From Streptococcus suis (lineage in GTDB: Bacteria; Bacillota; Bacilli; Lactobacillales; Streptococcaceae): DNA of 64,000 nt. The notes beneath the pieces were generated by a model. That model was given only the letters and a program-made list of their open reading frames with translations. It did no database searches and had not been told where the DNA came from. The translations under genes were made by a program, and so were the position numbers. Positions 4,159-51,132 of the stretch are shown in pieces. Location of the stretch: the NCBI GenBank assembly GCA_002831545.1, contig CP025095.1, positions 682,001 to 746,000 of the forward strand, in the 5' to 3' direction. The first letter of the stretch is position 1; the number at the start of each line of letters is the position of its first letter.

Positions 4159-4182
4159 AGAGTGGGGTATGCACAGATAGAT

Positions 4183-4219
4183 GAGCAGTGGACAGGATGT
4201 TCACTGCTTGTCTTTTTTG
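4183..4219 (+). terminator. Intrinsic terminator after first M26 protease
   Basis: An 8-bp stem (GAGCAGTG at 4183-4190 with CACTGCTT at 4202-4209, one G-U pair) is followed by a T-rich run. It separates the two protease genes into separate transcripts. Confidence 0.75.
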
Positions 4220-4322
4220 TCAGAAAGGTATTCTATTAAATCTTACAGAAATATAGAAAGGAAATTTTTAGCGGAGCTAGTGTGATTGCATGATTGATGA
4301 ATGTTAATTTGCGAATTCGTGA

Positions 4323-4328
4323 TATAAT
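4323..4328 (+). promoter_or_regulatory. -10 box for the second M26 protease gene
   Basis: A TATAAT hexamer lies 49 bases before the ATG at 4377. No well-spaced -35 box is seen. The start is supported by the AAAGGAGAAGG Shine-Dalgarno sequence just upstream. Confidence 0.5.
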
Positions 4329-4376
4329 AAAAGCGATATCTTAATTCTATATTGTATAAAGGAGAAGGTTTAGAAA

Positions 4377-7300: not shown

Positions 7301-10300
7301 AACCCGTCCGACGACTAGTGAGCCAGTTCGCCAAGCAGGACGTGATAAAGTAACGATTATCACTACTAGCTATAGCGTTAATCCAAACACAGGAGAGGTT
7401 ACTGCAAGTGAACCAGTTCGTAAGGTGACAGATGAGGGTCAATCAACAGTTATTACAGTCGGTACACAGGCTACCGAAGAAGAAGTCAGAGAAGCCTTGC
7501 CAGCAATCTATGAGGCTGATGATACCATTCCACTCGGACAACAAACCCCATTCTTCGCTGGAAGAGAGAAGGTGACCGTATATCGGACTACTTATGTATT
7601 AGACGAAGAAACTGGTCAGGTAAGCAGTCAACGTGACCAAGGCACTCTCCGAGAAGTAGGTGAATCACCAATCATTCGAGTCGGTACCCAGCCGAAAGTG
7701 GAAACTCTTCGCGAGCCTTTGCCGGTCGTTTATCAGGCAGATACAACCCGTCCGACGACTAGTGATCCAGTTCGCCAAGCAGGTCGAGATAAGGTGATAA
7801 CTCTTACCACCACCTATAGCGTTAATCCAAACACAGGAGAGGTTACTGCAAGTGAATCAGTTCGTAAGGTGACAGATGAGGGTCAATCAACAGTTATCAC
7901 AGTTGGTACACAACCAACAGTTCGTGAAGTTAGTCAGACTCTTCCAACCGTATATAGGGCGAGAGAAGATATGGAACCGCCTTATCGAAAAGAAGTGGTC
8001 ACTGCTCAAGAACGCCGACTTGGGTATCGTACAAACTATGTGGTTAATCCTCAGACAGGGGAGCGTCTTCCACAAGCCGAAGAATCCTTTGTGATATCTG
8101 AAGGTCGTGCAGCTATCATCGAGGTTGGTACAAAATCGACAGTTGTGAGTGAAAAAGTCCCTCATCAAGTTATACGTCAGGATGATTTCACCTTGCCAGA
8201 AGGTGAGGAAGTTGAAGGCCCAGCCGGTCGAGATGGTAGCATAACCAGAACGACATCGTATCGCTTGAATGAAGCGACGGGAGAGCTAGAGACATTGTCG
8301 GTACAAATTGTGGAGGTTGCTGCTCAAAATCAAGTTATTCGAGTTGGTAAAAAAGTTGAAGAAGTGCCACCGAAACCACTCGAAAAACCAACGGTCCGTT
8401 TGGCTAGCGAACGTGCTGGTGGTGCCTTGGTGGTAAATGAAGAAACATCACAGGCTGATTTATACTATCATGTCACTGATCCTGACAATACTTTGCAAAG
8501 CATTCGCCTAGAAATCTATAATGGCCAAGAACTCGTTAAAACTGTTGAAAAAAATTATGATGGTGGGGTAGATGGTTCGCTTCAAGTCACAGATTTGCAG
8601 CACTATGCAGCTTATCAGGCTCGTCTGTCCTATCGTTATAGGACCCAAGACGGTCAGGCAGATGAAACGGTTGCTACTTTGCCATTTGAAATTAGTCCTA
8701 AGTCGATTGAATTTAACAGAGTTAGCAAGAGAGAATTGTTCTATCGTGACCAAGCAGGAGAATTCCAGCAGGTGACTGGACTTTTACAGGCACCGAGTGA
8801 CCTATCCAACTATTTTGTTCGTTACATAAGTCCAGATTCTAAGGAATTTTTATGGGCAGTTGATACGATTACGGAAAACGGCAATCAGTTTGATATAGCG
8901 GTTCGTTTGCCAAAATTAGTTCAGGCTAGAGATCAGGCAGATTCCAATCAACTAGAGAGCCTGGATAAATTCCAAGTTTCGAAGATTGTTTTGGCTCAAG
9001 ATAGTTATGTAGACTTCCAGCAATTGATTCAAGCCATGAAGGCACGACCAGACGGCACCTTCAAATTAGCGGCTGATTTGGTAGCTAGTCCAACTACTGA
9101 TACGGTTTACGTGGAAAACTTCCGTGGTCGTTTGGAAGGCTTGGATGGTAAGGTCTATCGTATTCTCAATTTGAATAAGCCATTGTTCCAAACAATGACA
9201 GGAGCAAGGGTTGAAAATATCCTACTTGAAAATGTAGCATTGGAGAGTGGGGATGCTCGAGCAGCTGCTTTAGCTATCACTGCAAATACTAGTCAGATAC
9301 AAAATGTTCATGTGACTGGTCGTATTCAATCTTATGTAGGTGCAGCAGGTCTGGTCTATGAGTCGAATAGTAGTCAATTTGATTCGGTTTCCTTCAAGGG
9401 AGAATTGGTCTTGAATGAGCACCGAACTAGCAATCAAATTACTTCTGGTGGCTTGGTTGGTAGGTTGATGTCTGGTAGTAGCTTGCGCAAGGCCTATGTG
9501 AACTTGACGTCTACCTTTACACCACGTATCTCTATGCAAGATAGGTTGGGAGGACTAGTTGGAACTGCTATTTTATCTACTATTGATTCAGTCTTTGTAG
9601 AGGGACAAGTGACTAATACTGAGCAGACCAATACTCTAGCTGGGCTTGTTGCAGTTGGTTATATGCCAAGTATTTCCAATGTTGCCTCCGCATTAAAATT
9701 GCCAGAAACAGGGCTTTTGGTCGGAACCAGAACACCACTACCTCTTACTGTATTGGTGCAAGAAAATGTATCGACAGGAGTTGAGGATAATGGTCACAAG
9801 GCGCAGCAGAAATCAACAGAAGAGCTTAAGCAGATTCTTTCTACATGGGGCTTGGATAGGGTTATGCAACCGATTCAGGATGCTTCAGGTAATTCGGACC
9901 AAGCAAGTCATCAGCAAGTGGCTTATCACCTCTTACGCAATGGTAGAGAAGATAGGAAGGTTGCTTATGAAAATATGTCTAAACTCTTGCCATTCTATGA
10001 TCGCCACACTATCGTTCGAATGGGGAATAAATTAGCAACTGATTCAGTATTTGTAACCAAGTCTATTCAATCAATTGTTGCCCTAAAAGATAAGGAAGTT
10101 GTGACAGATTTTTCTGCCCAACCGAGCCAAGTAAACAAACTTTTGGTTTACTTCACAGATAAAGATGTTCAAGTCTTTGACTTAGCTTATCAAGGAGCAT
10201 ATGACCAAACAGGTGTATTAGAATATCGTTTAGGAACAGATTTACTCTTTACACCATACCAGTGGGTAAGTGGACAAAATAGCACATCTCTTGTAGCGAC

Positions 10301-12482
10301 ACTTCGTAATAGTTTCAAAGACTTGGATGTAGAATCTGATGCTTATGCAACTAAAACAAAAATGGCTGGTTATTTGGAAGAGTTACGATTTAAACTTGGT
10401 AAACAAGATTTAACCATTAGTATGAAACAACTCTATCTGAAGAGAACCCAGCAACTATTAAAAGATAATTTGGATCAGGAATTAGGTTCATTTTTAGCTA
10501 GTCAGTGGGTGACAAATGGGGCTACTTCAGCCATTAATGCCTATATGCAGAAACAAGTTGAAGACAATAAAGAATCCATCTGGCTTGCCTTGACCTATTT
10601 GGCACGCTACTACGGTATAGACTTTGATAAACTTAACTTGCGTAATTTAGCTATTTACCAACCGCATTTCTATGGACAATCTCTTTCAACTTTGGATTGG
10701 TTGAAAGAAGTTGGTAATCTAACTTACAAAGAATTGGCACCATTTGCAGCACCAATCACTTTCAAAAAGATATTTGAAAAACAAGTAGGAGTTGGACAGG
10801 ATCTTTTTGCTTACTTAGAGTTGAATCGCCAGTTATTCTCACCTGAAAAAACAGATGCAAATTGGTTTAAAGAGTCTAGCAAAGCCTTTATACATGAGGA
10901 AGTAAGTATAAGTAATCCGTCTAAGTCTGTACAGGTTTATGAACAAATTAAAGGTAATAGTGACTATCACCGTTATATCTTGCCGTTGTTGAACCTACCA
11001 GAGGAGGACCAACTTTACCTCGTTTCACTTCCAAACGTTCTTGTTTTTGGTAGCTATGGTCGATATGTAGATCATCAGTTACAAATCAGTCAGCCCGAAC
11101 TGTACCTAGCTAAGGTCAAAGAAATTCAAGAACAACGGATTCCAAAACACGCCCAGATTTGGAACAGATATATGGAGTTTATCAAGTCCTTGGTATCTGA
11201 CGCTGCACGTCAATCTATCGAATCTAAGCTAATCACAGTTCGTGAAGGATATAATATCAAGGATCCTGCTGGAAAACCATTACGGGGGGATGAGAATGAC
11301 CGTCGTCGTTGGGCAGCGGAATTTGGCGATTCCTACAGCATTATAGATGATTTCTTTGGACCGACAGAACTTTACTATGGTAGTTTTGAGATGTCAGGGG
11401 CGGCAGACTTTGAGTTTAAGAAATACATCATCTATGGCAATGTTGACTTGTTGACATCGACTGGAAATTCAACCTTCACGCATGAAATGACCCACATTCT
11501 CGAAGATCAAATCCTAAATCTTGCAGGAAGACGGCAGGGTCAAGAGTCAGAATCCTATGCAATGGGGCTCTTGCAATCCATCGCTTCGTCGAATGCCTAT
11601 TATTATGGTTTTAACCTGACAGAAGAACTGGCAGCAACAGCCAGTCATAACTCTAGTCCAAGCCGTTTAACTAGCAAGGAAGATTTGCAGAAATATCTCA
11701 AAGGCTCCTTTGATACCACTTATTTCTTAGATGCCTTAGAGGCTGAGGAAATGCTGAAATTGCCAAAAGATCAGTACAAAACTCTCTTGCGTAGAATAGA
11801 ATTGGAATTGGGAGAAACTTATAGTCAAAATGGTCACACATATCGTGACGCATTTGATAAAATTCGAAATCTAAGTGAATCCGAATGGCAAGCAATTAAC
11901 TTGACTAAGGTAGAAGATCTGGTTACTCATAATCTTCAATTGGCGAACACAATCAATAATATCGGTACTTACTTGAGAGACAATGATAAAAATTACTACT
12001 TTGTATCGCTCTACTATCCGATTTATGCAGGTCTACTTAACAATCAAGGAACGGTTGGAGGACTTCAGTTCCGTCGTACTGCCTTGGAACTTTTAGCTGA
12101 AAAAGGTTGGGATCAAGGATTCATACCATACGTGAGCAATCAATTAGTTCAAGAGGCTCAGACCAATGGTAAAGCTTTAACAGATGAATACATTTGGAAC
12201 AAGCTTATGCCTGATTACCAAGACTATGCAAGCTTCAAGAAAGCTCGTTATCAGACTAGTTTGACCCAGAAAAATACCATGAAACTAATTCAAATTTCAT
12301 GGCAAGGTCAACAGTATGAACTCAAAAATGGACAAGAGATTCAAGCTTTGATGAAGTCGGCAATTCTAGCAGATTTGGCAAGTCCGCAAAGTAGCTTCCA
12401 ACGACAGCAGCTAAAAGAAGTCTTGTACAAGGCCTTTCATGAAGCAAGTCAAGAATTTAGGGAAAGTATTTTCTTGCCATAA
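4377..12482 (+). CDS. iga: YSIRK signal, N-terminal LPxTG, G5-repeat M26 metalloprotease (IgA1 protease family)
   Basis: A 2701-residue surface protease. The order is a YSIRK-like signal peptide (residues 1-40), LPVTG at 94-98 followed by two hydrophobic segments (about 103-121 and 127-147), a long G5-like repeat region (about 225-1345), a GLUG-like M26 N-terminal region (about 1545-1810) and the M26 peptidase part. The zinc motif HEMTH is at residues 2369-2373, with a Glu about 23 residues later as probable third ligand. An LPxTG near the N-terminus rather than the C-terminus is a known trait of streptococcal M26 proteases and fits cell-wall anchoring with the catalytic part facing out. The repeats include three 444-bp DNA units and two 309-bp units, so copy number may vary between strains. 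The IgA1 specificity is inferred from the family only; another host substrate is possible. Confidence 0.9.
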   Translation: MKQYRHSIFSIRKLSIGVVSLCIGSGLLLSSLSGLQVEASERIAKSNQEIHFQYLLEEELSPEEKNRIVQNLPEELRQEATYFVVYRPHPSKVLPVTGEVVSQVAGWLAAGFLLIGIRAISSKKARVTSLLYITISGTVLPVLQIEALQSHALARFNQMVTVKAGDVLPDGKLKLDSYDFVGYIVEEGKTSDANITLPNLDNSQKSTGLDEPNLTDKEIPNSTEPSLPQILIKYREEQIPMEMKRVVVDDPELAVGQERLEAGVAGYYLHRYEESWLGDNLQSSRLIEVIEEVGKPEILYRGTKVEELPEQPIETQVPDHAPTAQPPVRLEYELQERVDQQVLPILEERIETDRLAQGETETVEGQTGLLEITYQDVIVDGKVIASNEVSRTETPAINRKVYVGTRVVEELPEQPIETQVPDHAPTAQPPVRLEYELQDRVDRQVLPIQEERIETDRLAQGETETVEGQTGLLEITYQDVIVDGKVIASNEVSRTGTPAINRKVYVGTRVDSKEVEPLTHSIPEAIIVSEEVPIPFEREQRSDPTMAVGTSRVEAGKEGLSREIYAELNGVRTHLKSEEITPAQPEITYVGSAVDEVTEEELPLVERIVELADQYTDYILEVQAGYPGRRKTISRNGEVIRVETEEGQEKIVHIGIKPIEGTVVENLSQTLDYGTVYQANPNLAFGVRQETEGQAGQEVFEVTYRTIKGQKTEEIRRKRISYTTPVDKVITVGTQATEEEVREALLAIYEADDTIPLGQKTPFSDGREKVTVYRTTYVLDEETGQVSSQRDQGTLREAGESPIIRVGTQPKVETLREPLPVVYQADTTRPTTSEPVRQAGRDKVTTITTSYSVNPNTGEVTASEPVRKVTDEGQSTVITVGTQATEEEVREALPAIYEADDTIPLGQKTPFSDGREKVTVYRTTYVLDEETGQVSSQCDQGTLREAGESPVIRVGTQPKVETLREPLPIVYQADTTRPTTSEPVRQAGRDKVTIITTSYSVNPNTGEVTASEPVRKVTDEGQSTVITVGTQATEEEVREALPAIYEADDTIPLGQQTPFFAGREKVTVYRTTYVLDEETGQVSSQRDQGTLREVGESPIIRVGTQPKVETLREPLPVVYQADTTRPTTSDPVRQAGRDKVITLTTTYSVNPNTGEVTASESVRKVTDEGQSTVITVGTQPTVREVSQTLPTVYRAREDMEPPYRKEVVTAQERRLGYRTNYVVNPQTGERLPQAEESFVISEGRAAIIEVGTKSTVVSEKVPHQVIRQDDFTLPEGEEVEGPAGRDGSITRTTSYRLNEATGELETLSVQIVEVAAQNQVIRVGKKVEEVPPKPLEKPTVRLASERAGGALVVNEETSQADLYYHVTDPDNTLQSIRLEIYNGQELVKTVEKNYDGGVDGSLQVTDLQHYAAYQARLSYRYRTQDGQADETVATLPFEISPKSIEFNRVSKRELFYRDQAGEFQQVTGLLQAPSDLSNYFVRYISPDSKEFLWAVDTITENGNQFDIAVRLPKLVQARDQADSNQLESLDKFQVSKIVLAQDSYVDFQQLIQAMKARPDGTFKLAADLVASPTTDTVYVENFRGRLEGLDGKVYRILNLNKPLFQTMTGARVENILLENVALESGDARAAALAITANTSQIQNVHVTGRIQSYVGAAGLVYESNSSQFDSVSFKGELVLNEHRTSNQITSGGLVGRLMSGSSLRKAYVNLTSTFTPRISMQDRLGGLVGTAILSTIDSVFVEGQVTNTEQTNTLAGLVAVGYMPSISNVASALKLPETGLLVGTRTPLPLTVLVQENVSTGVEDNGHKAQQKSTEELKQILSTWGLDRVMQPIQDASGNSDQASHQQVAYHLLRNGREDRKVAYENMSKLLPFYDRHTIVRMGNKLATDSVFVTKSIQSIVALKDKEVVTDFSAQPSQVNKLLVYFTDKDVQVFDLAYQGAYDQTGVLEYRLGTDLLFTPYQWVSGQNSTSLVATLRNSFKDLDVESDAYATKTKMAGYLEELRFKLGKQDLTISMKQLYLKRTQQLLKDNLDQELGSFLASQWVTNGATSAINAYMQKQVEDNKESIWLALTYLARYYGIDFDKLNLRNLAIYQPHFYGQSLSTLDWLKEVGNLTYKELAPFAAPITFKKIFEKQVGVGQDLFAYLELNRQLFSPEKTDANWFKESSKAFIHEEVSISNPSKSVQVYEQIKGNSDYHRYILPLLNLPEEDQLYLVSLPNVLVFGSYGRYVDHQLQISQPELYLAKVKEIQEQRIPKHAQIWNRYMEFIKSLVSDAARQSIESKLITVREGYNIKDPAGKPLRGDENDRRRWAAEFGDSYSIIDDFFGPTELYYGSFEMSGAADFEFKKYIIYGNVDLLTSTGNSTFTHEMTHILEDQILNLAGRRQGQESESYAMGLLQSIASSNAYYYGFNLTEELAATASHNSSPSRLTSKEDLQKYLKGSFDTTYFLDALEAEEMLKLPKDQYKTLLRRIELELGETYSQNGHTYRDAFDKIRNLSESEWQAINLTKVEDLVTHNLQLANTINNIGTYLRDNDKNYYFVSLYYPIYAGLLNNQGTVGGLQFRRTALELLAEKGWDQGFIPYVSNQLVQEAQTNGKALTDEYIWNKLMPDYQDYASFKKARYQTSLTQKNTMKLIQISWQGQQYELKNGQEIQALMKSAILADLASPQSSFQRQQLKEVLYKAFHEASQEFRESIFLP
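5289..5906 (+). repeat. Two tandem 309-bp repeats inside the protease gene
   Basis: The unit starting GTTGAAGAGCTTCCC at 5289 recurs at 5598, giving a 309-bp (103-residue) period. The two copies are nearly identical and encode G5-type modules ending in a GTRV motif. Periods are multiples of three, so unit loss or gain keeps the frame. Confidence 0.85.
6573..7904 (+). repeat. Three tandem 444-bp repeats inside the protease gene
   Basis: The phrase GGTACACAGGCTACC starts at 6573, 7017 and 7461, and a diverged GGTACACAA phrase at 7905 marks the end, so the period is exactly 444 bp (148 residues). Each unit holds two G5-like modules. Copies differ at a few bases only, for example CGT versus TGT (Arg to Cys) in the second copy, which suggests recent duplication or gene conversion. 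Confidence 0.9.
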
Positions 12483-34470: not shown

Positions 34471-35187
34471 ATGCTAGGTCATAGGTTAGTAAGAGAAAAA
34501 GAAAATAGGATCAAAGGTGGTCTTTACCATAAGGTTCAGATAGAGCTGGCTTTCAACTCAAACCATATAGAGGGGAGTCAACTGACGCATGACCAGACAC
34601 GGTATATCTATGAGACCAATACGATTGGTTTTGAAGAAAATTCAACCATAAAGGTGGATGATATTATCGAAACGACCAATCATTTTACGGCTTTTGATTT
34701 TCTCTTAGACAGCTTTCAAGATGATTTGAATGAAACTTGGATAAAGGAGATTCATGCTATTTTGAAGAGAGGAACCTCTGATTCTCGGAAGTCATGGTTT
34801 CAAGTCGGAGACTATAAATTATACCCAAATGAAGTCGGCGGTCGTGAAACGACTCTACCCGAGCATGTGGAGTCAGATATGCAAGAATTGCTTAGAAATT
34901 ATCATGCTCTATCATCTACTTCCTTTGAGGATATTCTTGACTTTCATGTTCGATTTGAACGCATCCATCCCTTCCAAGATGGTAACGGACGAGTAGGTCG
35001 ATTGATTATGTTCAAAGAATGTCTTAAACATGGACATATCCCCTTTATCATCGGAGATGACATGAAGTATTTTTACTATCGTGGCTTAGCCGAGTGGGGA
35101 GAACAGAATGGTTTCTTGCTGGATACTTGTCTAGCAGCACAAGATAGATTTAAGCAATATTTGGAGTATTTTAGGGTTGAGGATTAA
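34471..35187 (+). CDS. Fic family protein, class II with N-terminal inhibitory motif
   Basis: A 238-residue Fic protein. The full catalytic motif HPFQDGNGRVGR is at residues 166-177, so AMP transfer (or a related nucleotidyl transfer) to a target protein is expected. The N-terminal SNHIEG (residues 30-35) fits the S/TxxxE G/N inhibitory helix of class II Fic proteins, so the enzyme should be self-inhibited. It lies inside the capsule operon between the dehydratase and the initial transferase, with hairpins on its upstream side and the next gene 17 bases downstream. No antitoxin gene is next to it. Its target is unknown; capsule enzymes or regulators are only a guess. Confidence 0.88.
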   Translation: MLGHRLVREKENRIKGGLYHKVQIELAFNSNHIEGSQLTHDQTRYIYETNTIGFEENSTIKVDDIIETTNHFTAFDFLLDSFQDDLNETWIKEIHAILKRGTSDSRKSWFQVGDYKLYPNEVGGRETTLPEHVESDMQELLRNYHALSSTSFEDILDFHVRFERIHPFQDGNGRVGRLIMFKECLKHGHIPFIIGDDMKYFYYRGLAEWGEQNGFLLDTCLAAQDRFKQYLEYFRVED

Positions 35188-42599: not shown

Positions 42600-44099
42600 T
42601 TGATAAAAAAGTTAACGACAAAAGTTATATTTAAAAACACCATTATTTACATGGTTTGTGGGGTGTTAATTAGAGGATTTAGTTTTTTTCTACTTCCGCT
42701 CTATACTTCTTATTTAACCACTGTTGATTATGGTATTACAAGTCTTGTAAGTAGTTTTTTAATAACCGGTTCATTTTTAGTCGCTGCATCGTTATATTCA
42801 GCAATATTTCGCTTTTATGTAGATTTAAAACATGACACAGTTAGGTTAAGTCGCTTTTATGGGACTATAATTTTATTTGTTTTAATAATGAGTATTATTG
42901 CTAGTGTAGTCATGATACTTGGAAAGGAGCTAGTTGGTCATTATTTTTTTCCCAACATCGACTTTTTTCCGACGATATTCATTTCCATTTTATCACTAGT
43001 TTTTTATTGTCAGTATACTATTTATGAAAATATTTTAAAAAGTCAACAGCAAGCTGGAAAGTATGCAATTATTACACTGATATTTTTTATTCTTACCCTA
43101 GTTTTAAATATATTATTTGTAGTACATTTTAAACTGGGAGCGAATGGTGTCTTACTTGCCAATCTCATAACATATGCTGTGTACTTCTTTGTAATGTTAG
43201 TTGATTTATGGAAATCTAGTATGATAATGTGGTGTTTGGATAAAAGCTTACTAAAGGAAGCTTTGCTATATTCGATACCAATAATCCCTCATAATTTATC
43301 AACCCATATCACAGTTTTTTTGTCGAAGCTTTTTATCGGAGACATTGGGAATCTAGGAGATGTAGGACTGTTTGCGATTGCCTCCCAATTCGGTAGTATT
43401 GCTGATATAGTTCAAGGTTATGTGAATAGTGCTTACGGTCCATGGCTCTATGAGCAGATGACGATATTAAACGATTCAGTTCGGAAGAATATTGCGAAAA
43501 TTTCAGAAATTTTAACGTATGTAATTGGTTTTTTCCTTTTGGGCATTGCACTATTTTCTCATGATTATATTATTTTGTTATTAGATAAAGGCTATGCTTC
43601 TTCTTGGAAGTATATTCCTTTGATAGTAAGTGTATTTTTGATAAAGATACTTTACTATTTTTATGTAGAAATTCTCTTCTATCATAAGAAAGCATCAAGA
43701 TTGATTTTTGTTGCAACCTTATCAAGTAGCTTGGTGAATGTGGTAATTTCTTATTATTTGATTGGAATCTTAGGTATAACCGGCTCAATCCTTGCAGATT
43801 TTATTTCAATGTTCATACGAGTCGGGATTGTCATAGCAATTAGCAAACGATTTGAAGATATAGGATTAAAGCTTTCAAAGCTTGTCTATATCATCATGGT
43901 AGTTGTTGTTTTTATGGGGATTGGGCTGTATTTTACATATCTTAACTATCCGTTTACATTTAGTTATATTGAGTTTGGGTACAGAGTTGTTGTGATGTTT
44001 ACTTACCTAGGTTTTGTGCTTTATAAATTCCGTGCAGAGTTTAAACAATTCTTAAATCAGAGAAAAAATCTTTTGGGAGGAAAAAATGGAAAGAAATGA
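42600..44099 (+). CDS. wzx: Repeat-unit flippase (Wzx)
   Basis: A 499-residue polysaccharide transporter of the MOP superfamily with about 12-14 hydrophobic segments (TIIYMVCGVLIRGFSFFLLPLYTSYL at the start). It moves lipid-linked repeat units across the membrane for Wzy. The start is TTG at 42600 with a GAGG about 10 bases upstream; the next LicD gene starts within its last codons. AT-rich. Confidence 0.88.
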   Translation: MIKKLTTKVIFKNTIIYMVCGVLIRGFSFFLLPLYTSYLTTVDYGITSLVSSFLITGSFLVAASLYSAIFRFYVDLKHDTVRLSRFYGTIILFVLIMSIIASVVMILGKELVGHYFFPNIDFFPTIFISILSLVFYCQYTIYENILKSQQQAGKYAIITLIFFILTLVLNILFVVHFKLGANGVLLANLITYAVYFFVMLVDLWKSSMIMWCLDKSLLKEALLYSIPIIPHNLSTHITVFLSKLFIGDIGNLGDVGLFAIASQFGSIADIVQGYVNSAYGPWLYEQMTILNDSVRKNIAKISEILTYVIGFFLLGIALFSHDYIILLLDKGYASSWKYIPLIVSVFLIKILYYFYVEILFYHKKASRLIFVATLSSSLVNVVISYYLIGILGITGSILADFISMFIRVGIVIAISKRFEDIGLKLSKLVYIIMVVVVFMGIGLYFTYLNYPFTFSYIEFGYRVVVMFTYLGFVLYKFRAEFKQFLNQRKNLLGGKNGKK

Positions 44100-44937
44100 A
44101 TTTTTGGAAGAGGTTCGTAAGAGTTCATATTATCGTAAAGATTTCGAACAAATTTTTGAAGAGTTCAAATCCTATCAAGATTTAATTTTGAATGCTTTGA
44201 GAGAATTTCATAAGGTTTGTGTCACGAACTCAATTCCATATCAATTAGCATATGGTTCCTTATTAGGTGCTGTGAGAGATAATGGTCAAATTCCATGGGA
44301 TTATGATGTGGATGTTTTTGTTCCATATTCGAAAAAAGAGGAGCTTATTGAGGCACTAAAGAATGATTTGAACGACGAGTTTTATTTTTACTGTCCAGAA
44401 GTCGATGAGAACTGTCGTCATTATATGATGCGGATTGCACCAAAAGGTTACTCTACGGAGTTATTTCATTTAGATGTATTTTATTTGATTGGTATGCCAG
44501 AAGAGCCAGAAGAAAGGAAGAGATTTTCTAAAGAAGTACAACAACTGGCCTTTATCAGATACTATAAATTGATTTCTCTTATAAAATCAACTAATTCATT
44601 TAAAGGTGCAGTAAAAATCGGTTTATTTAAGCTGAGATACTTATTTCGAAATGTTGAAAGAGATTATAAGAAATTTGAAGAATTATGTAGTATGTATGGA
44701 CTGGAGGAGTCAAGTTACGCCACAACAGCAGACATTTTTGCCACATGGTATGAGATTCCAACAAAAAATGTACTATCGATAGAAAAAATGCAAACTTTAG
44801 AAGGTGAATTTTGTGTGCCAACATCTTACGAGCAGTTACTTTCGTTACTCTATGGTGATTATTTAAAGGTACCTGCATTAGAAAATAGAATCAAAGAATT
44901 ACTGAAACATCATAATTTACAGTCTAAGAATATTTAA
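44086..44937 (+). CDS. LicD family phosphocholine transferase-like protein
   Basis: A 283-residue LicD-type protein: QLAYGSLLGAVRDNGQIPWDYDVDVFVPY contains the metal-binding DYDVDV pair. LicD proteins transfer phosphocholine or related phospho-groups from a CDP-activated donor to a sugar of a surface polymer. It is directly followed by a LicC-LicA fusion, so phosphocholine is the most likely group. It overlaps wzx by 14 bases with GGAGG just before the ATG. Confidence 0.88.
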   Translation: MERNEFLEEVRKSSYYRKDFEQIFEEFKSYQDLILNALREFHKVCVTNSIPYQLAYGSLLGAVRDNGQIPWDYDVDVFVPYSKKEELIEALKNDLNDEFYFYCPEVDENCRHYMMRIAPKGYSTELFHLDVFYLIGMPEEPEERKRFSKEVQQLAFIRYYKLISLIKSTNSFKGAVKIGLFKLRYLFRNVERDYKKFEELCSMYGLEESSYATTADIFATWYEIPTKNVLSIEKMQTLEGEFCVPTSYEQLLSLLYGDYLKVPALENRIKELLKHHNLQSKNI

Positions 44938-44950
44938 TGAGGTTGCATGG

Positions 44951-46495
44951 ATGATACTAAAAAATGCTATTATTCTCGCGGCGGGCTTAGGTAGACGAAC
45001 TATCCCATTAAATTTTGAGACTCACAAGGCTTTTCTAGAAGTGAATGGTGAGATATTGATTGAACGATTAATCGTACAACTCAAAGAAGCTGGGGTTTCT
45101 GAAATTATTATTGTTATTGGATACAAAAAAGAACAATTCCGATATTTAATAGATAAGTACGAAGTTGAATTAATTGAAAATGATGATTTTGCTAACTCCA
45201 ATACACTATACTCCCTAAGTTTAGCGGAATCCTATTTGTCGAATTCCTATATAATTCCATGTGACATCTGGTGCGCAACAAATCCTTTTACTAGCAAGAA
45301 AGATGACTCCTCTTGGTATATGATTGCTGATATTTCAAAAAACGTAACAAAGTTAGATGATTTGAGCGAAAGATTAGGTGTTGCTTTTATAGAGCAATCA
45401 GATTCAATTTGGATAAAACAGAGGCTTCGAGAGTTGGCAAATAATCCTAGTCAACAAATGCTAGCTTGGGAAGAGCTTTTGGTTACAGATGGGGAACTAG
45501 CAATACCTACATTCAAAAATTGCGAGCATTTTATACAAGATATTAATACATTTGAAGATTTGATATACTTAGATGATATGTCTAATCATTTAAGAGTAGA
45601 AGCAATAGATATTATTTGTACAACTTTTGATATTGATCCTAAAGAAATAAAGAATGTACTTGCCTTGAAAAAAGGCATGACCAATCGTTCTTTTATGTTT
45701 GAATGCAAGGAAAAAAGTTACATTATGAGAATTCCTGGGGAGGGAACCGATAAATTAATTAATCGAGAACAGGAAGCTGAAGTTTACAGAGTAATTGCTG
45801 GGGAAAGTATTAGTGATGAATTGATTTATATTAGCCCTGAAAAAGGATATAAAATTACTTCTTTTATTGATGGTGCAAGAAACTGTGATTCAAATAATAA
45901 AAGCGATGTTTCATTATGTATGAAAAAATTAAGAAGTTTTCATGAAAAGGAATTAACTACTTCTCATGAGTTTGATTTATTTGGAGAGATAGAATTTTAT
46001 GAAAGCTTAAGAGGAAACAGGGAGTCTATATACGAAGACTATCAATCTGTTAAAAATAGAGTACTTACTCTTAAGAGTTATATTCAGTTGAATATAGAAA
46101 AAAAGGTTCTTTGTCACATTGATGCAAATCCCGATAATTTCTTAATCTTTGAGAAAAATAATCAAACAGAGGTTCGTTTAATTGATTGGGAGTATGCAGG
46201 GATGCAGGATCCTGATTTAGACATTGCGATGTTTGCTATTTATTCTCAATACAATAGGGAGCAAATAGATTTTTTGATAGACGCATACTTTGAAGAAGGA
46301 TGCGAAGAAAGAATAAGAATGAAAATTTATGCATATGTTGCTACTGCTGGTTTGTTATGGAGCAATTGGTGTGAATATAAACAGCAAGTAGGGGTTGAGT
46401 TTGGCGATTATGCTCAGTCCCAGTATGAATATGCAAAAGAGTTTTCCGTTATAGTCAGTGAGTATCTATCAACTTTTGAAGATGGTGTTCATTAG
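44951..46495 (+). CDS. Bifunctional phosphocholine cytidylyltransferase/choline kinase (LicC-LicA fusion)
   Basis: A 514-residue two-domain protein. Residues 1-225 are a nucleotidyltransferase (AIILAAGLGRRTIPL, IIIVIGYKKEQF, ENDDFANSNTLYSL), as in LicC. Residues about 235-514 are a choline/ethanolamine kinase of the APH fold with GMTNRSFMFE, Brenner motif CHIDANPDNFLI (Cys388-His389) and the metal-binding IDWEYAGMQDPDLDIA. Together they would make CDP-choline from choline through phosphocholine. It lies right after licD and would provide its donor. A separate licC-like gene exists at 50443, so one of the two may use a different substrate. Confidence 0.87.
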   Translation: MILKNAIILAAGLGRRTIPLNFETHKAFLEVNGEILIERLIVQLKEAGVSEIIIVIGYKKEQFRYLIDKYEVELIENDDFANSNTLYSLSLAESYLSNSYIIPCDIWCATNPFTSKKDDSSWYMIADISKNVTKLDDLSERLGVAFIEQSDSIWIKQRLRELANNPSQQMLAWEELLVTDGELAIPTFKNCEHFIQDINTFEDLIYLDDMSNHLRVEAIDIICTTFDIDPKEIKNVLALKKGMTNRSFMFECKEKSYIMRIPGEGTDKLINREQEAEVYRVIAGESISDELIYISPEKGYKITSFIDGARNCDSNNKSDVSLCMKKLRSFHEKELTTSHEFDLFGEIEFYESLRGNRESIYEDYQSVKNRVLTLKSYIQLNIEKKVLCHIDANPDNFLIFEKNNQTEVRLIDWEYAGMQDPDLDIAMFAIYSQYNREQIDFLIDAYFEEGCEERIRMKIYAYVATAGLLWSNWCEYKQQVGVEFGDYAQSQYEYAKEFSVIVSEYLSTFEDGVH

Positions 46496-46585: not shown

Positions 46586-47641
46586 TTGAAATTAAATAGG
46601 AACAGAATTATTTTCATCACAGGTTCAGCTGGTTTCATCGGTAGCAACCTAGTATTAGAACTATTACGGAGTGACGAAGTATATCATATTATCGGTCTTG
46701 ATAATATGAATGATTACTACCAAGTATCGCTCAAGCATTATCGTCTTGAACAGATTGAGCAACAGTTGACTCATAGTAAAAGCAAGTGGACGTTCATAGA
46801 GGGAGACTTGGCAGACAAGGATTTGGTCACTTCAATTTTTGAAGATTACCATCCGAATATTGTTGTTAATTTAGCTGCTCAGGCTGGAGTTCGCTATTCC
46901 ATTACCAATCCAGATGTTTATATAGAAAGCAATATTATTGGTTTTCAAAATATCTTAGAAGCCTGCCGTCACTATCCTGTTGAGCATTTAGTATACGCGT
47001 CATCGTCTTCTGTCTATGGAGGAAATGAAAAAGTACCATTCTCTACGGACGATAAAGTTGATAATCCAGTTTCACTATATGCTGCAACTAAAAAGTCAAA
47101 TGAGTTATTTGCTCATGCTTATAGTAAACTATATGATATACCAACAACTGGTTTACGTTTCTTTACAGTTTATGGTCCTGCAGGACGACCAGATATGGCA
47201 TACTTTGGTTTTACTAATAAATTGATAAAAGGTGAAACGATTGAAATTTTCAACTACGGAAATTGCAAGCGTGATTTTACCTATGTTGATGATATTGTGG
47301 AAGGTGTCAAGCGTGTAATGTTTGGCGCACCGCAGAAGAGAAGTGGAAGTGATGGTCTCCCTATTCCGCCGTATGCAATCTACAATATTGGCAATAGCAA
47401 TCCTGAAAACTTATTGGATTTTGTTCACATATTGAGTGAGGAACTAGTTTTGGCAGGAGTATTGCCAGCAGATTTTGATATTGAAGCACATAAGAAACTT
47501 GTACCTATGCAAGCTGGAGATGTACCTGTAACCTATGCTGATACCTCTGATTTGGAGAGAGATTTTGGTTTTAGCCCCTCTACCACTCTCAGAGAAGGCT
47601 TGCGCCAATTTGCTCAATGGTATAAAGAGTATTACAAATAG
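46586..47641 (+). CDS. UDP-glucuronate 4-epimerase (CapI-like)
   Basis: A 351-residue extended SDR protein: ITGSAGFIGSNLV at the N-terminus, LDNMNDYYQVSLKHYRL (typical of UDP-GlcA epimerases), the catalytic SSSSVYGGN and YAATKK pair. It would convert UDP-glucuronate to UDP-galacturonate. The start is TTG at 46586 after GGGAGG. The UDP-glucose dehydrogenase that makes its substrate is the next gene, so the pair supplies uronic acids to the capsule. Confidence 0.87.
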   Translation: MKLNRNRIIFITGSAGFIGSNLVLELLRSDEVYHIIGLDNMNDYYQVSLKHYRLEQIEQQLTHSKSKWTFIEGDLADKDLVTSIFEDYHPNIVVNLAAQAGVRYSITNPDVYIESNIIGFQNILEACRHYPVEHLVYASSSSVYGGNEKVPFSTDDKVDNPVSLYAATKKSNELFAHAYSKLYDIPTTGLRFFTVYGPAGRPDMAYFGFTNKLIKGETIEIFNYGNCKRDFTYVDDIVEGVKRVMFGAPQKRSGSDGLPIPPYAIYNIGNSNPENLLDFVHILSEELVLAGVLPADFDIEAHKKLVPMQAGDVPVTYADTSDLERDFGFSPSTTLREGLRQFAQWYKEYYK

Positions 47642-47786
47642 TTTTATTTTGCTATTGGGGCGATAGCCTTTTGGACAAATGCCATAATTTGTGTCAGGAT
47701 TAGTAAGAAAGGACTAGTAAATAACATTCACTAACTTCGTGAGATTTGCATCTGGTTTTTCCTCTTACATTAAAAGGAGTTAATCA

Positions 47787-47858
47787 TGATAAAAGACATT
47801 CATTCGATTTTATTGTTCAAACCAAATCTTAATTTGGATATAGTGCCAGAACTGTAGG
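47787..47858 (+). CDS. Possible 23-codon small ORF of unknown function
   Basis: ATG 47787 follows AAAAGGAG by a short spacer and the frame (MIKDIHSILLFKPNLNLDIV...) ends at a TAG after 23 codons. I recognise no family. It may be the remains of a larger gene, because the 329-base stretch 47642-47970 otherwise holds only the promoter of the next gene. Confidence 0.25.
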
Positions 47859-47910
47859 AAGATGGATAATTTTCATAGTTGATTTTACTTTCTTTTTAAT
47901 AATCATTATT

Positions 47911-47939
47911 TTGATTTTTTTAGTAACAAATGGTATACT
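47911..47939 (+). promoter_or_regulatory. Promoter of the HTH-UDP-glucose dehydrogenase gene
   Basis: TTGATT (47911-47916), a 17-bp spacer and TATACT (47934-47939) preceded by TG form an almost ideal sigma-A promoter with an extended -10. It gives this gene its own transcription start inside the capsule locus. The ribosome site GAGGTGA follows at 47959-47966. Confidence 0.75.
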
Positions 47940-47952
47940 TTGTATACCATTT
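47928..47952. promoter_or_regulatory. Perfect palindrome over the -10 box, candidate operator
   Basis: AAATGGTATAC (47928-47938) and GTATACCATTT (47942-47952) are perfect 11-bp inverted copies around TTT. It covers the -10 box and the expected start point, so a bound protein would block transcription. The gene behind it encodes a helix-turn-helix domain, which makes self-repression likely. Confidence 0.7.
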
Positions 47953-47970
47953 TTATATTGAGGTGAAATT

Positions 47971-49461
47971 ATGAGTAACAAAGAATTTTCTCAAGAATTT
48001 CTTAAAACTATTATTTTTTCTAAAAGAAAAGAGTTAGGGTATTCTCAGCAGGAACTTTCTGATTTGACAGGAATAAATAGGGCTATGATTAGCAAGTTGG
48101 AGCAAGGGGAGTATCTTCCGTCAATTCCGCAATTACTTTCTCTGAGCAATGTGCTTGATTTTGAAATAAACAGTTTATTTGTTTCTGATTTTCCGAAGTC
48201 AATCGGCACTCTTCCGGCAAAAAAAATCGCTGTCGCAGGAACAGGCTATGTTGGTCTATCTATCGCTGTTTTACTAGCCCAGCATCATCAACTCACAGCT
48301 GTGGATATTATCCAAGAAAAAGTTGATTTAATCAATGCAAAGAAGTCTCCTATTCAAGATGATTATATTGAAAAATATCTAGCTGAGAAAGACTTGAATT
48401 TAGTAGCAACACTTGATGCAGAAACAGCCTACAGAGAGGCAGAAATTGTTGTGATTGCTGCTCCAACTAATTATGATAGTGCTAAGAATTACTTCGATAC
48501 AAGTCATGTGGAAGCCGTTATACAGGCAGTATTATCGGTCAACCCTCAAGCTTTAATGGTTATCAAATCAACGATTCCTGTTGGCTTTACCCAATCTATG
48601 CGTGAGAAGTTTGGTACAGAAAATATTATTTTCAGTCCTGAATTTCTTAGAGAGTCAAAAGCACTTTATGATAATCTTTACCCTTCACGAATTATTGTGT
48701 CTTGTGAAGAAGGGACTCCAACTTCGGTAGTAGAAGGTTCAAGATTATTTGCCTCACTTCTACAAGAAGGAGCCTTGAAGAAAGATGTGGAAGTGTTGCA
48801 TATGGGTTCTACAGAGGCAGAGGCAGTCAAGCTTTTTGCCAATACCTATTTAGCCTTGCGCGTTTCCTACTTCAATGAATTGGATACCTATGCAGAGTTG
48901 AAAGGGCTGGATACCGAATCCATTATCAAGGGTGTTGGCTTAGATCCACGTATTGGTGACCACTACAATAACCCTTCTTTTGGCTATGGTGGATACTGTC
49001 TACCAAAAGATACCAAGCAGTTGTTGGCGAATTACAATGATGTTCCGCAGAATATGATGACGGCCATTGTTGAAGCAAATAAAACAAGGAAAGATTTCAT
49101 TGCCGATCAGGTGCTGAAAATGGCTGGCTATTATGATTACTCTGAACATGATAGCTATTCTCGCCAGCAAGAAAAAGAAATAATTGTTGGTGTTTACCGT
49201 TTAACGATGAAGAGTAACTCAGATAACTTTAGACAGAGTTCTATTCAAGGCGTCATGAAACGATTGAAAGCCAAAGGTGTAAAGGTCATTATTTTTGAAC
49301 CAACTTTAGAGGCTGGTTCAACCTTCTTTGGTTCTAAAATTGTCAATGATTTGAAAAAATTTAAAGCACAGTGTCAAGCTATTGTAGCCAATCGTTATGA
49401 TAGTTCTTTGGACGATGTGCGGGATAAGGTCTATACACGAGATATTTTTAGGAGAGACTGA
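47971..49461 (+). CDS. ugd: UDP-glucose 6-dehydrogenase with N-terminal XRE-type HTH domain
   Basis: A 496-residue fusion. Residues about 8-65 form a Cro/C1-type helix-turn-helix ([47 protein letters not shown]). From residue 84 a complete nucleotide-sugar dehydrogenase follows: GTGYVGL (90-96), [37 protein letters not shown] and the catalytic Cys343 in [14 protein letters not shown] normal Ugd would begin at the KKIAVAGTG stretch, so about 80 residues are extra and in unbroken frame. It oxidises UDP-glucose to UDP-glucuronate with NAD. It has its own promoter with a palindrome, so it may sense sugar nucleotide or NADH state and control its own gene. Confidence 0.9.
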
Positions 49462-49510: not shown

Positions 49511-50431
49511 ATGAAGCTTAGTTTAAGAGGAAATTTACAGGGCTTATTATCAGGCATGTTTTGGGGGTTAGACACATCCTTGAATAGCTTAATATTATTA
49601 ATGGCTCCTTTCATTGTTGAGGATAGTAAACTATTATCTTCTACTTTACTATTGGCATTTTTTCATGATTTCTTTTCTGCGATTTTTTTAACAATTGACT
49701 TATCTATCAGAGGTTGTTTTAAAAATACGATACAAATTATGAAAACTAGAAGTGCTTATTTTGTAATGATAGCAGCAGTATTCGCTGGTCCTTTAGGGAT
49801 GAGAGCCTATCTTTTTGCGGTTGAAAAGTTGGGTGCTGGTTTAACAGCAACAATATCTGCTATATATCCTGCGATAGCTGCTTTATTAGGAATGATTTTT
49901 TTAAAAGATTATTTGACAAGAAAGGGATGGTTTGGACTAGCTTTAACCATCTTGGCAGTTATTTTTCTTGGATATAGTGGCTTTTCTCAAATAGAAGAAT
50001 TATTCGTTGGCTCTTTAGCAGCATTGCTATGTGTAATTGGCTGGGCTTCAGAGAGTGTAATTACCGCTTATGGTATGAAAGAAGATATCTTACCTAAACA
50101 AGCTTTATTTATCAGGCAATGGACTTCAAGCTTAGTCTATCTGTTGTTTATGATAGTAGAGGGGGATGTTGTTTACAGTGTAGCAACTGTTTTAAACTCA
50201 CAATCAATTCTTGTTATCGTTTGTCTTGCATTAATAGGGACTCTTTCCTATTTATTCTATTATTCTGCTATTGATAATATAGGACCTGTAAGAGCGACAG
50301 GTTTAAATGTTACTTATTCGATTTGGACAGTCATTTTTTCATTGTTGTTTTTTGGAGGACAATTAGATATTAAATTAGTTATCAGTAGTGTAGCTATCAT
50401 TATTGGTACGCTATTTGTTTTAAAAAACTAA
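49511..50431 (+). CDS. DMT/EamA permease, LicB-like
   Basis: A 306-residue membrane protein with ten hydrophobic segments in two EamA halves (GLLSGMFWGLDTSLNSLIL at the start, FAGPLGMRAYLF, YPAIAALLGMIFLKDYL, GWASESVITAYGMK, VRATGLNVTYSIWTVIFS). It resembles LicB, the choline uptake protein of the streptococcal lic operon. The ATG at 49511 is chosen over an upstream GTG-like open frame because AAAAGGAG lies 7 bases before it and the earlier residues are not conserved-looking. With licC directly after it, it probably imports choline or a related amine. Confidence 0.82.
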   Translation: MKLSLRGNLQGLLSGMFWGLDTSLNSLILLMAPFIVEDSKLLSSTLLLAFFHDFFSAIFLTIDLSIRGCFKNTIQIMKTRSAYFVMIAAVFAGPLGMRAYLFAVEKLGAGLTATISAIYPAIAALLGMIFLKDYLTRKGWFGLALTILAVIFLGYSGFSQIEELFVGSLAALLCVIGWASESVITAYGMKEDILPKQALFIRQWTSSLVYLLFMIVEGDVVYSVATVLNSQSILVIVCLALIGTLSYLFYYSAIDNIGPVRATGLNVTYSIWTVIFSLLFFGGQLDIKLVISSVAIIIGTLFVLKN

Positions 50432-50442
50432 AAGGAGAATTT

Positions 50443-51132
50443 ATGAGAGCGATTATTTTAGCAGCTGGAATGGGAACTAGATTGAGACCACTGACTTTAA
50501 CAACTCCTAAATCTTTGATTAAAGTTGGAGGTCAAACATTAATAGAAAGACAAATTTTGTTTTTAAATGAAATTGGTATTTCGGAAATTATTATTGTGAC
50601 AGGTTATTTGTCAGAAAAGTTTGACTTCTTAGAGAATAAATATGGTGTAAAATTAATTCATAATGATAAATATGATACCTATAATAACTTTTATAGCATG
50701 TATCTTGTACGGGATTTTTTGAGTGATGCTTATGTAATTGATGCAGACAATTATCTGCACATGAACTTCTTAGATTCTGATATAACCATTTCTACATATT
50801 TTTCGGCATATAAAGATAATTTTGAGGATGAGTGGCTTTTAAAATGCGATGATAATGGTCTGGTGAAAGAAATTGTGATAGATAATGGTGAGGGCTCTAT
50901 TCTATCTGGGGTATCATATTGGGATGCAAAATCTGGTCAGGTTCTAAAAAAACTTATTGAAGAGATGTTAGAATCAAATGATTTTTGTAATTTATATTGG
51001 GATAATCTTGTAAAAGATAACTTGGATAAGTTGATAGTATATAAGAGAGACATTCCTTCGAACGTTATATTTGAGATTGATAATCTTAATGATTTCGACC
51101 AGCTACAAGAATTTTTAAGTTCCCATACCTAG
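50443..51132 (+). CDS. Nucleotidyltransferase, LicC-like phosphocholine cytidylyltransferase
   Basis: A 229-residue single-domain nucleotidyltransferase: AIILAAGMGTRLRPLTLTTPKSLIKVGG, EIIIVTGYLSEKF, HNDKYDTYNNFYSMY and DADNYL metal-binding Asp pair. It is close in plan to LicC of pneumococcus. It follows the permease by 11 bases with AAAAGGAG. It is a second cytidylyltransferase besides the fusion at 44951; the two N-terminal domains are related but clearly diverged. The capsule operon proper ends here in debris. Confidence 0.85.
   Translation: MRAIILAAGMGTRLRPLTLTTPKSLIKVGGQTLIERQILFLNEIGISEIIIVTGYLSEKFDFLENKYGVKLIHNDKYDTYNNFYSMYLVRDFLSDAYVIDADNYLHMNFLDSDITISTYFSAYKDNFEDEWLLKCDDNGLVKEIVIDNGEGSILSGVSYWDAKSGQVLKKLIEEMLESNDFCNLYWDNLVKDNLDKLIVYKRDIPSNVIFEIDNLNDFDQLQEFLSSHT

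What the first reader, a model, noticed from the sequence alone, without database searches (positions are those of the whole stretch)
47911..49461. UDP-glucose dehydrogenase fused to a DNA-binding domain, with a perfect palindrome over its own promoter
Seen in sequence: an unbroken 496-codon frame with a Cro/C1-type HTH (residues 8-65) ahead of a complete UDP-glucose dehydrogenase (GTGYVGL at 90, Cys343), a near-consensus promoter (TTGATT, 17 bp, TG-TATACT) and an 11+11 bp palindrome that covers the -10 box. Known: Ugd enzymes normally start right at the Rossmann motif, and XRE domains bind short palindromes as dimers; Ugd is itself a dimer. Inference: the enzyme represses its own gene and may sense UDP-sugar or NAD(H) state, a direct link between capsule precursor supply and transcription.
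Basis: partly seen in the sequence, partly recalled or inferred. Interest (0 to 1): 0.78.

Follow-up and report, generated by a model that had tools for sequence, protein, structure and literature searches.

The report
Sugar enzyme controlling its own gene
An enzyme that makes a capsule sugar precursor in a pig streptococcus carries a DNA-binding domain, and comparison with dozens of relatives in other bacteria indicates that it binds its own promoter and so sets its own supply, although no binding experiment has been done.

Summary
ORF 47971-49461 (496 aa) joins an XRE-type helix-turn-helix (HTH) to a complete UDP-glucose dehydrogenase (Ugd). A perfect 11+3+11 palindrome covers its -10 box, in a Streptococcus suis-type capsule locus. 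HTH-Ugd is widespread in Bacillota: 56 of 63 loci of an HTH-only genome scan are such fusions, annotated, where named, only as sugar dehydrogenases. Many relatives carry a comparable palindrome, TGTTAY-N5-RTAACA, near their start. At one mismatch within 110 nt it is found in 41 of 68 fused genes, 0 of 79 HTH-less ugd genes and 0.5% of shuffles. A form noted earlier from Lactobacillales holds in 28 of 43 fused genes fetched later, against 6 of 79 controls. Two sites occur in 27 of 69; in one group the pair lies between divergent ugd and epimerase genes. The S. suis palindrome fits the same half-site with a 7-nt gap. Other Streptococcus HTH-Ugd genes, including the host's own paralogue, lack a recognisable site. 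Best reading: an enzyme that represses its own promoter, like PutA. Sensing of UDP-sugars or NAD(H) is plausible and untested.

The parts
47911..47939 (+). sigma-70-like promoter of HTH-ugd: TTGATT, 17 bp, extended -10 TGG-TATACT
   Evidence: consensus scan; read in sequence; start site not mapped
47928..47952 (.). perfect 11+3+11 palindrome over the -10 box; operator core TGGTAT-N7-ATACCA at 47931-47949
   Evidence: same place and similar half-sites in five Streptococcus relatives
47912..47928 (.). possible second, weak site TGATTTTTTTAGTAACA (two mismatches to TGTTAY-N5-RTAACA), centre 20 bp upstream of the palindrome centre; tentative
47960..47965 (+). ribosome-binding sequence GAGGTG
   Evidence: read in sequence
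47971..49461 (+). HTH-ugd gene, 496 aa
47992..48180 (+). XRE/HTH_3 DNA-binding domain, residues 8-70; recognition helix residues 37-44 (48079-48102)
   Evidence: Pfam, PDB sequence matches incl. SinR, AlphaFold2 block means 91-96
48220..49458 (+). UDP-glucose dehydrogenase domain, residues 84-496, catalytic Cys343
   Evidence: T201, E228, K287, N291, C343, D347 invariant in the 53 fused sequences aligned
46586..47641 (+). NAD-dependent epimerase, probably UDP-glucuronate 4-epimerase; related genes recur beside HTH-ugd
   Evidence: Pfam Epimerase, no NCBIfam equivalog cut-off met; neighbour analysis; substrate inferred
49517..50431 (+). EamA transporter, 55 bp downstream, probably co-transcribed
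   Evidence: operon inferred from distance
50443..51132 (+). nucleotidyltransferase, 11 bp further, probably same operon
   Evidence: operon inferred from distance

Best explanation
HTH-Ugd is a trigger enzyme: an active UDP-glucose dehydrogenase that is also the transcriptional repressor of its own gene. The XRE domains of a Ugd dimer bind an inverted repeat whose half-site is about TGNTAY (N5 between half-sites in most Bacillota, N7 in the S. suis group). In S. suis this repeat covers the -10 box, so bound protein excludes RNA polymerase and enzyme level is held constant. Where two sites are present, roughly whole helical turns apart, two dimers probably bind together or loop the DNA. In Erysipelotrichaceae the pair would also control the divergent epimerase. 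Shown here by computation: the fusion, its spread, the sites and their association with the HTH. Inferred: enzyme activity, binding, repression, dimer geometry, looping. Guessed: that binding of UDP-glucose/NAD(H) to the Ugd domain changes DNA affinity.
For: Site TGTTAY-N5-RTAACA with at most 1 mismatch within 110 nt upstream: 41 of 68 fused genes, 0 of 79 HTH-less ugd genes, 0.5% of shuffles. Holdout: the motif GTTAYTnnnAATAAC was written down from Lactobacillales before the loci were fetched. In 43 later fused genes (42 of named non-Lactobacillales source, one titled only 'bacterium') it is present with at most 2 mismatches in 28, against 6 of 79 controls, 1 of 43 in coding stretches of the same genes, and about 3.4% of shuffles (Fisher p 2.4e-11). 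Tree: all 60 fused Ugds lie in one clade of 97 rows with 37 HTH-less ones; site within 260 nt in 40 of 60 fused and 0 of 66 HTH-less. HTH-less close relatives of this gene (L012, 94% identity; L014, 88%) lack the S. suis palindrome and have no TGNTAY-N7-RTANCA better than 2 mismatches. Sites are local: of 31 exact sites in 12 genomes (reversed control 12), 17 are at the promoter of the HTH-ugd already known there and 2 more before a second HTH-ugd in G931. In the S. suis group four of six genes match TGNTAY-N7-RTANCA exactly and two with one mismatch, all at -40. In 15 of 15 Erysipelotrichaceae-type loci checked the site ends in TAACAT, a possible -10, with TTG exactly 11 nt before the site, so there too it covers the -10. 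Catalytic residues are invariant in 53 fused sequences.
Against: No binding data. 27 of 68 fused genes have no site at 1 mismatch or fewer. The host's second HTH-Ugd (G000:C1:1075230) and its relatives, and the L223, L224, L225, L227 and L229 types, have no clear site. The S. suis palindrome differs in spacing from the common site, so its assignment to the same family of operators rests on half-site similarity and position, and the N7 pattern was drawn from the same six related genes it is counted in. Controls are all Lactobacillales, and several lie directly behind an upstream gene without room for a promoter of their own. Loci were found by the helix pattern INRAxIS[RK][IL]E, so the set leans towards one recognition helix. 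Independent phylogenetic contrasts were too few for significance (6 pairs, median p 0.25, none contrary). L012 and L014 have other short inverted repeats upstream (8-bp arms). A second intergenic TGGTATACGTAGTATATCA in the host genome lies near unrelated genes.
Confidence: 0.78

Rival explanations
1. The palindromes are sites of another repressor that controls the gene, and the fused HTH has a different or no DNA target.
For: XRE proteins are numerous; several fused genes have no recognisable site. Standalone XRE relatives of the HTH exist (L167, L171, L172).
Against: The site follows the presence of the HTH across Bacillota and is absent upstream of the HTH-less ugd genes examined. Exact sites away from HTH-ugd (12 of 31) are as many as the reversed control gives in all (12), which does not suit a regulator with other targets.
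Confidence: 0.1
2. The S. suis palindrome acts as RNA: a terminator or leader hairpin that insulates the gene from read-through, unrelated to the HTH.
For: If transcribed whole it folds at -10.6 kcal/mol (z -3.3) and is the one terminator-like hit of the 500-bp scan (shuffles 0.1). The C-to-U change in relatives keeps a G-U pair.
Against: From the promoter it overlaps, transcription would start inside the right arm (inferred), so the hairpin would form only in read-through RNA. Only 3 G-C pairs. Three examples of the common type fold weakly (-0.9 to -2.9 kcal/mol, z -1.9 to +0.75). No Rfam family matches 47600-48000.
Confidence: 0.08
3. The HTH is a relic kept for oligomerisation or stability, without regulatory function.
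For: The HTH label needs 8 changes on the tree, at least 6 forced: most simply it has been lost repeatedly without loss of the enzyme. AlphaFold2 shows it as a separate domain joined by a low-confidence linker.
Against: In 17 fused sequences not chosen by a helix pattern, R37 and E44 of the HTH are invariant and I35 and N36 nearly so; the stronger invariance is partly built in, because most of its rows came from the helix-pattern scan. L069 has Cys at 37. The site association is unexplained under this view.
Confidence: 0.06
4. HTH-Ugd binds the sites but activates rather than represses, or regulates mainly the neighbouring polysaccharide genes.
For: In 7 of 11 loci with an adjacent divergent epimerase, the upstream site overlaps the -35 of a TTGTAA-17-TAT(G/C)AT promoter facing the epimerase. 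One exact site precedes galE in G463.
Against: Sites over the -10 (S. suis, Erysipelotrichaceae) or just before the ribosome-binding site favour repression. No wider regulon was seen in 12 genomes.
Confidence: 0.1

Closest known systems
PutA (proline dehydrogenase / repressor) and the trigger enzymes BirA and NadR
   Same: Metabolic enzyme with its own DNA-binding domain that represses its own gene; PutA binds only the spacer between divergent putA and putP (PMC8249747, passages read), as proposed here for ugd and epimerase in Erysipelotrichaceae.
   Different: Different enzyme, XRE rather than ribbon-helix-helix domain (the latter recalled), capsule-precursor synthesis rather than catabolism; binding and ligand switch not shown.
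Streptococcus pyogenes UDP-glucose dehydrogenase, 1DLI (organism and the gene name hasB recalled)
   Same: 60% identity over 411 aligned columns and the same catalytic residues.
   Different: No HTH; this protein has an extra 83-residue N-terminus and an insert of about ten residues near residue 393.
SinR and other XRE repressors
   Same: A profile of eight fused HTHs matches SinR (E 5e-7), CylR2 and C.BclI chains; palindromic operators at their own promoters are common in XRE autoregulators (PMC12565409, passages read).
   Different: SinR controls many genes with an anti-repressor (recalled); here the partner domain is an enzyme and sites are local.
Standalone XRE proteins L167, L171, L172 (118-122 aa)
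   Same: Share the N-terminus MK(T/S)LSxxKLAETV and the helix INRA(M/L/I)ISRIE.
   Different: Not fused; in L167 and L171 followed by a gene with the motif HELYHYY, metallopeptidase-like.

Membership tests
UDP-glucose 6-dehydrogenase | NAD-binding, central and UDP-binding domains above Pfam cut-offs | tested here: met
   108.5, 96.1 and 46 bits against 27, 25.4 and 30; NCBIfam TIGR03026 306.7 against 189.8
UDP-glucose 6-dehydrogenase | catalytic Cys, Lys, Asp, Asn, Thr, Glu (roles recalled from the 1DLI literature) | tested here: met
   C343, K287, D347, N291, T201, E228 aligned to 1DLI and invariant in 53 sequences
UDP-glucose 6-dehydrogenase | NCBIfam equivalog PRK15057 cut-off | tested here: not met
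   551.9 bits against 757; L212 and L155 also fall below it; the broader nucleotide sugar dehydrogenase model is met
UDP-glucose 6-dehydrogenase | enzymatic activity and substrate | not testable with these tools
   no assay
XRE/HTH_3 DNA-binding domain | HTH fold and profile score | tested here: met
   44.6 bits against 23; helices 26-33 and 37-44 at high pLDDT
Trigger enzyme (PutA type) | enzyme and DNA-binding domain in one chain | tested here: met
   maintained in relatives
Trigger enzyme (PutA type) | conserved operator at own promoter | tested here: met
   by comparison only, and not in every member: 41 of 68 fused against 0 of 79 HTH-less; holdout
Trigger enzyme (PutA type) | protein binds that operator and represses | not testable with these tools
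   needs EMSA and reporter
Trigger enzyme (PutA type) | substrate or cofactor switches DNA binding | not testable with these tools
   no computation here bears on it

The most novel reading that the evidence does not exclude
A Bacillota-wide class of self-sensing sugar-nucleotide enzymes: UDP-glucose dehydrogenase dimers bind two helically phased operators, loop the promoter DNA, and let go when UDP-glucose or NAD occupies the active site, so that the commitment step to uronic-acid capsule and cell-wall glycans measures its own substrate supply and sets its own transcription, and in some lineages that of the next enzyme, the epimerase.
Probability: 0.3. Interest if true: 0.8.

Novelty: new variant of a known kind. 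Interest (0 to 1): 0.62.

Why it matters
If right, hundreds of proteins (271 and 551 in two capped searches) that are named, where named at all, only as sugar dehydrogenases are regulators as well as enzymes, with a predicted binding site that can be tested in one gel shift. It would add a capsule-precursor enzyme to the short list of trigger enzymes and give a direct, single-protein link between UDP-sugar supply and transcription in gut bacteria, lactobacilli and streptococci.

Tried and rejected
Regulon reading: the S. suis palindrome was searched genome-wide; only one exact core copy, and matches with up to 2 mismatches equal the control. TGGTATACnnnGTATAYCA has one further intergenic match in the host genome, identical in G064 and G924, near a GIY-YIG-like gene and a glycerophosphodiesterase-like gene (names from motifs, recalled); not explained. 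Of the 31 exact TGTTAY sites, 12 are not at an HTH-ugd: one before galE; eight looked at, of which seven lie inside reading frames and one between genes; three in G929 not looked at.

RNA-hairpin reading: examined and kept only as a rival. Alternative alignment of the S. suis palindrome to the common site by its GT...AC ends (15-bp geometry) was my first view and was dropped for the half-site TGNTAY with N7, because L219 and L222 show intermediate half-sites.

Helical phasing: 16 distances (12 loci at 43 bp counted once) give R 0.64 at best in 10.2-10.8 bp, p 0.002, and R 0.56 at 10.5 bp, p 0.005 by jitter. The loci are not fully independent, so this is suggestive only.

Structure: the model is poor in the central Ugd region (mean pLDDT 77, pTM 0.57), so no dimer or hinge geometry was drawn from it.

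Papers: searches (listings only) showed no report of an HTH-Ugd; (listing) served to find trigger-enzyme papers. Most subscription journals are not held. Passages only were seen of PMC12565409, PMC1524751 (nothing useful), PMC8617651 (no mention of a helix or DNA-binding domain in its text by the term count), PMC6978683 and PMC8249747.

Rows dropped: L069 was given a wrong start in the stored set; its start was corrected for only, where it counts as a miss; it was left out, and still hold it with the wrong start. L185 equals L013 and was removed. Five near-duplicates were removed (73 to 68). L197 and L200 were added from then on. Controls include some genes fetched twice (79; 66 rows).

Full report
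Observation. The frame 47971-49461 encodes 496 residues. Residues 18-66 match Pfam HTH_3 and three UDP-glucose/GDP-mannose dehydrogenase domains match within 84-483, all above the curated cut-offs. The best PDB sequence match of the enzyme part is 1DLI (E 1.8e-153; 60% identity in the Foldseek alignment) with the catalytic residues in register. The palindrome at 47928-47952 is perfect. At up to three mismatches it is unique in the window and absent from 100 shuffles, and its core is unique as an exact copy in the host genome. AlphaFold2 on 53 fused sequences gives block means of pLDDT 91-96 for residues 11-70; parts of the central Ugd region are modelled poorly (mean 77, pTM 0.57), so no dimer or hinge geometry is drawn from it. 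The host is called S. suis-type because proteins with an identical HTH are named S. suis.

Spread of the fusion. A search with residues 1-80 found 271 proteins with E <= 0.001 among 316 candidates; the 120 listed carry HTH and Ugd Pfam domains. A Lachnospiraceae query gave 551 among 3097 candidates, the 120 listed again with both. Where a source name is shown, it is a nucleotide sugar or UDP-glucose dehydrogenase. In Streptococcus, 13 of 284 species genomes held have the HTH at E <= 1e-9; three more with a diverged HTH were seen (G121, G125, G340). The host genome and G474 have two copies each. Fusions occur in three further Lactobacillales families: 7 of 105, 3 of 350 and 3 of 76 genomes searched (read from the match tables). 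The genome-contig scan with the HTH alone, pattern INRAxIS[RK][IL]E, returned 63 loci, of which 56 are HTH-Ugd by translation: Lachnospiraceae, Anaerococcus, Erysipelotrichaceae, Ruminococcus, Enterococcus, Ligilactobacillus, S. suis and others. One ends inside the HTH and six are other XRE proteins.

Sites. Upstream regions of non-Streptococcus Lactobacillales fusions showed GTTAYTnnnAATAAC just before the ribosome-binding site (first noted). The later loci showed the longer form TGTTAY-N5-RTAACA. Within 110 nt and at most one mismatch it is found in 41 of 68 fused genes, 0 of 79 HTH-less ugd genes and 0.5% of Markov shuffles. In the holdout of 43 later genes the earlier motif is found at 2 or fewer mismatches in 28 (at 1 or fewer in 20), against 6 of 79 (0 of 79) controls and 1 of 43 internal coding stretches of the same genes. 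Forty-two of the 43 come from records named as non-Lactobacillales; one is titled only "bacterium". Mean A+T of the upstream regions is alike in the two groups (0.73 and 0.72).

Two sites. Within 260 nt, 45 of 69 fused genes have at least one site and 27 at least two, while shuffles have one in 0.8% and controls none of 79. In 12 of the 27 the two sites are exactly 43 bp apart; these are Erysipelotrichaceae-type loci. The other 15 distances are 82 to 203 bp and lean towards whole turns (R 0.56-0.64, p 0.002-0.005). Of 70 loci compared with the window's epimerase, 11 have a related gene divergent and adjacent, 12 have it behind HTH-ugd on the same strand, and in the window's own locus and L039 it precedes; other loci have it farther off or none in the stretch held. 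In 7 of the 11 divergent loci the upstream site overlaps the -35 of a TTGTAA-17-TAT(G/C)AT promoter facing the epimerase. On the ugd side, in 15 of 15 such loci, TTG stands exactly 11 nt before the site and TAACAT at its end, so the site would cover the -10 as in S. suis.

S. suis type. Six Streptococcus genes (L217-L222) have at position -40 TGGTAT-N7-ATACCA, TGGTAT-N7-ATATCA (three), TGATAT-N7-GTAACG and TGATAT-N7-GTAACT, that is TGNTAY-N7-RTANCA with no mismatch in four and one in two; in shuffles of five of them 0 mismatches is reached in at most 0.1% and 1 or fewer in 0.8-2.2%. These genes are related and the pattern was drawn from them, so this is not six independent cases. The half-site is that of the common operator with a 2-nt longer gap. 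L001 and L039 (95% identical protein) share the promoter-operator block and differ upstream of it, which fits transfer of gene and operator as a cassette. The second HTH-Ugd of the genome and the other Streptococcus types have no recognisable site.

Evolution. In a quick tree of 126 Ugd domains all 60 fused rows fall in one supported clade with 37 HTH-less rows. The HTH label needs 8 changes, at least 6 of them on starred branches, most simply one early fusion and repeated loss. L012 and L014, which lack the HTH, group with the window protein and L039 (support 89; without L014 99). Neither has the palindrome; each has other short inverted repeats with 8-bp arms.

Locality. In 12 whole genomes the exact site occurs 31 times (reversed control 12). 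Seventeen are at the HTH-ugd promoter, in G333, G334 and G265 the only one of the genome, and in G927 and G928 the only two. Two more precede a second HTH-ugd of G931 cut by a contig end, one precedes galE in G463; of eight others looked at, seven lie inside reading frames and one between genes; three were not looked at. The regulator therefore looks dedicated to its own gene.

Mechanism. An XRE dimer on a palindrome over the -10 box is a classical autorepressor arrangement. That the repressor is the enzyme itself is the PutA arrangement, where PutA binds only the spacer between divergent putA and putP (PMC8249747, passages). Enzyme activity, binding, repression and ligand control are inferred; none was measured. 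I put autoregulation at 0.78 and a ligand switch at about 0.4.

Limits. Motif counts use the set that suggested the long form of the motif; the holdout is the fairer test. Controls come only from Lactobacillales and several lack room for their own promoter. The loci were picked by one helix pattern, so the set leans towards one recognition helix, and the invariance of HTH residues is partly built in; in 17 sequences not so picked R37 and E44 are invariant. Independent contrasts on the tree were too few to be significant.

Noticed in passing
44086-46495 and 49517-51132: LicD-like, a nucleotidyltransferase-choline kinase fusion, an EamA transporter and a further nucleotidyltransferase flank HTH-ugd, which looks like a phosphocholine decoration module inside the capsule locus.
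   Followed up: no
34471-35187: A Fic-like protein (motif HPFQDGNGRVGR, label recalled) lies inside the capsule locus.
   Followed up: no
31-12482: Two very long adjacent frames (1375 and 2701 aa) with HExxH-like motifs that look like surface metallopeptidases, the second with repeats (not searched).
   Followed up: no
G000:C1:1075230-1076702 (L002, L005): Second HTH-Ugd paralogue of the host (71% identity) in another glycan locus with glycosyltransferase-like and flippase-like genes, without recognisable operator.
   Followed up: partly
L007:1500-1518: Intergenic TGGTATACGTAGTATATCA, identical in G064 and G924, near a GIY-YIG-like gene; a possible further target or an unrelated palindrome.
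   Followed up: partly
L167:4001-5225, L171:4001-5225: Standalone XRE proteins closely related to the fused HTH, followed by a gene with a HELYHYY metallopeptidase-like motif; possible source of the fused domain.
   Followed up: partly
L252:2917-3954: An exact TGTTAY-N5-RTAACA site 31 bp before galE in G463, the only exact site of that genome.
   Followed up: partly
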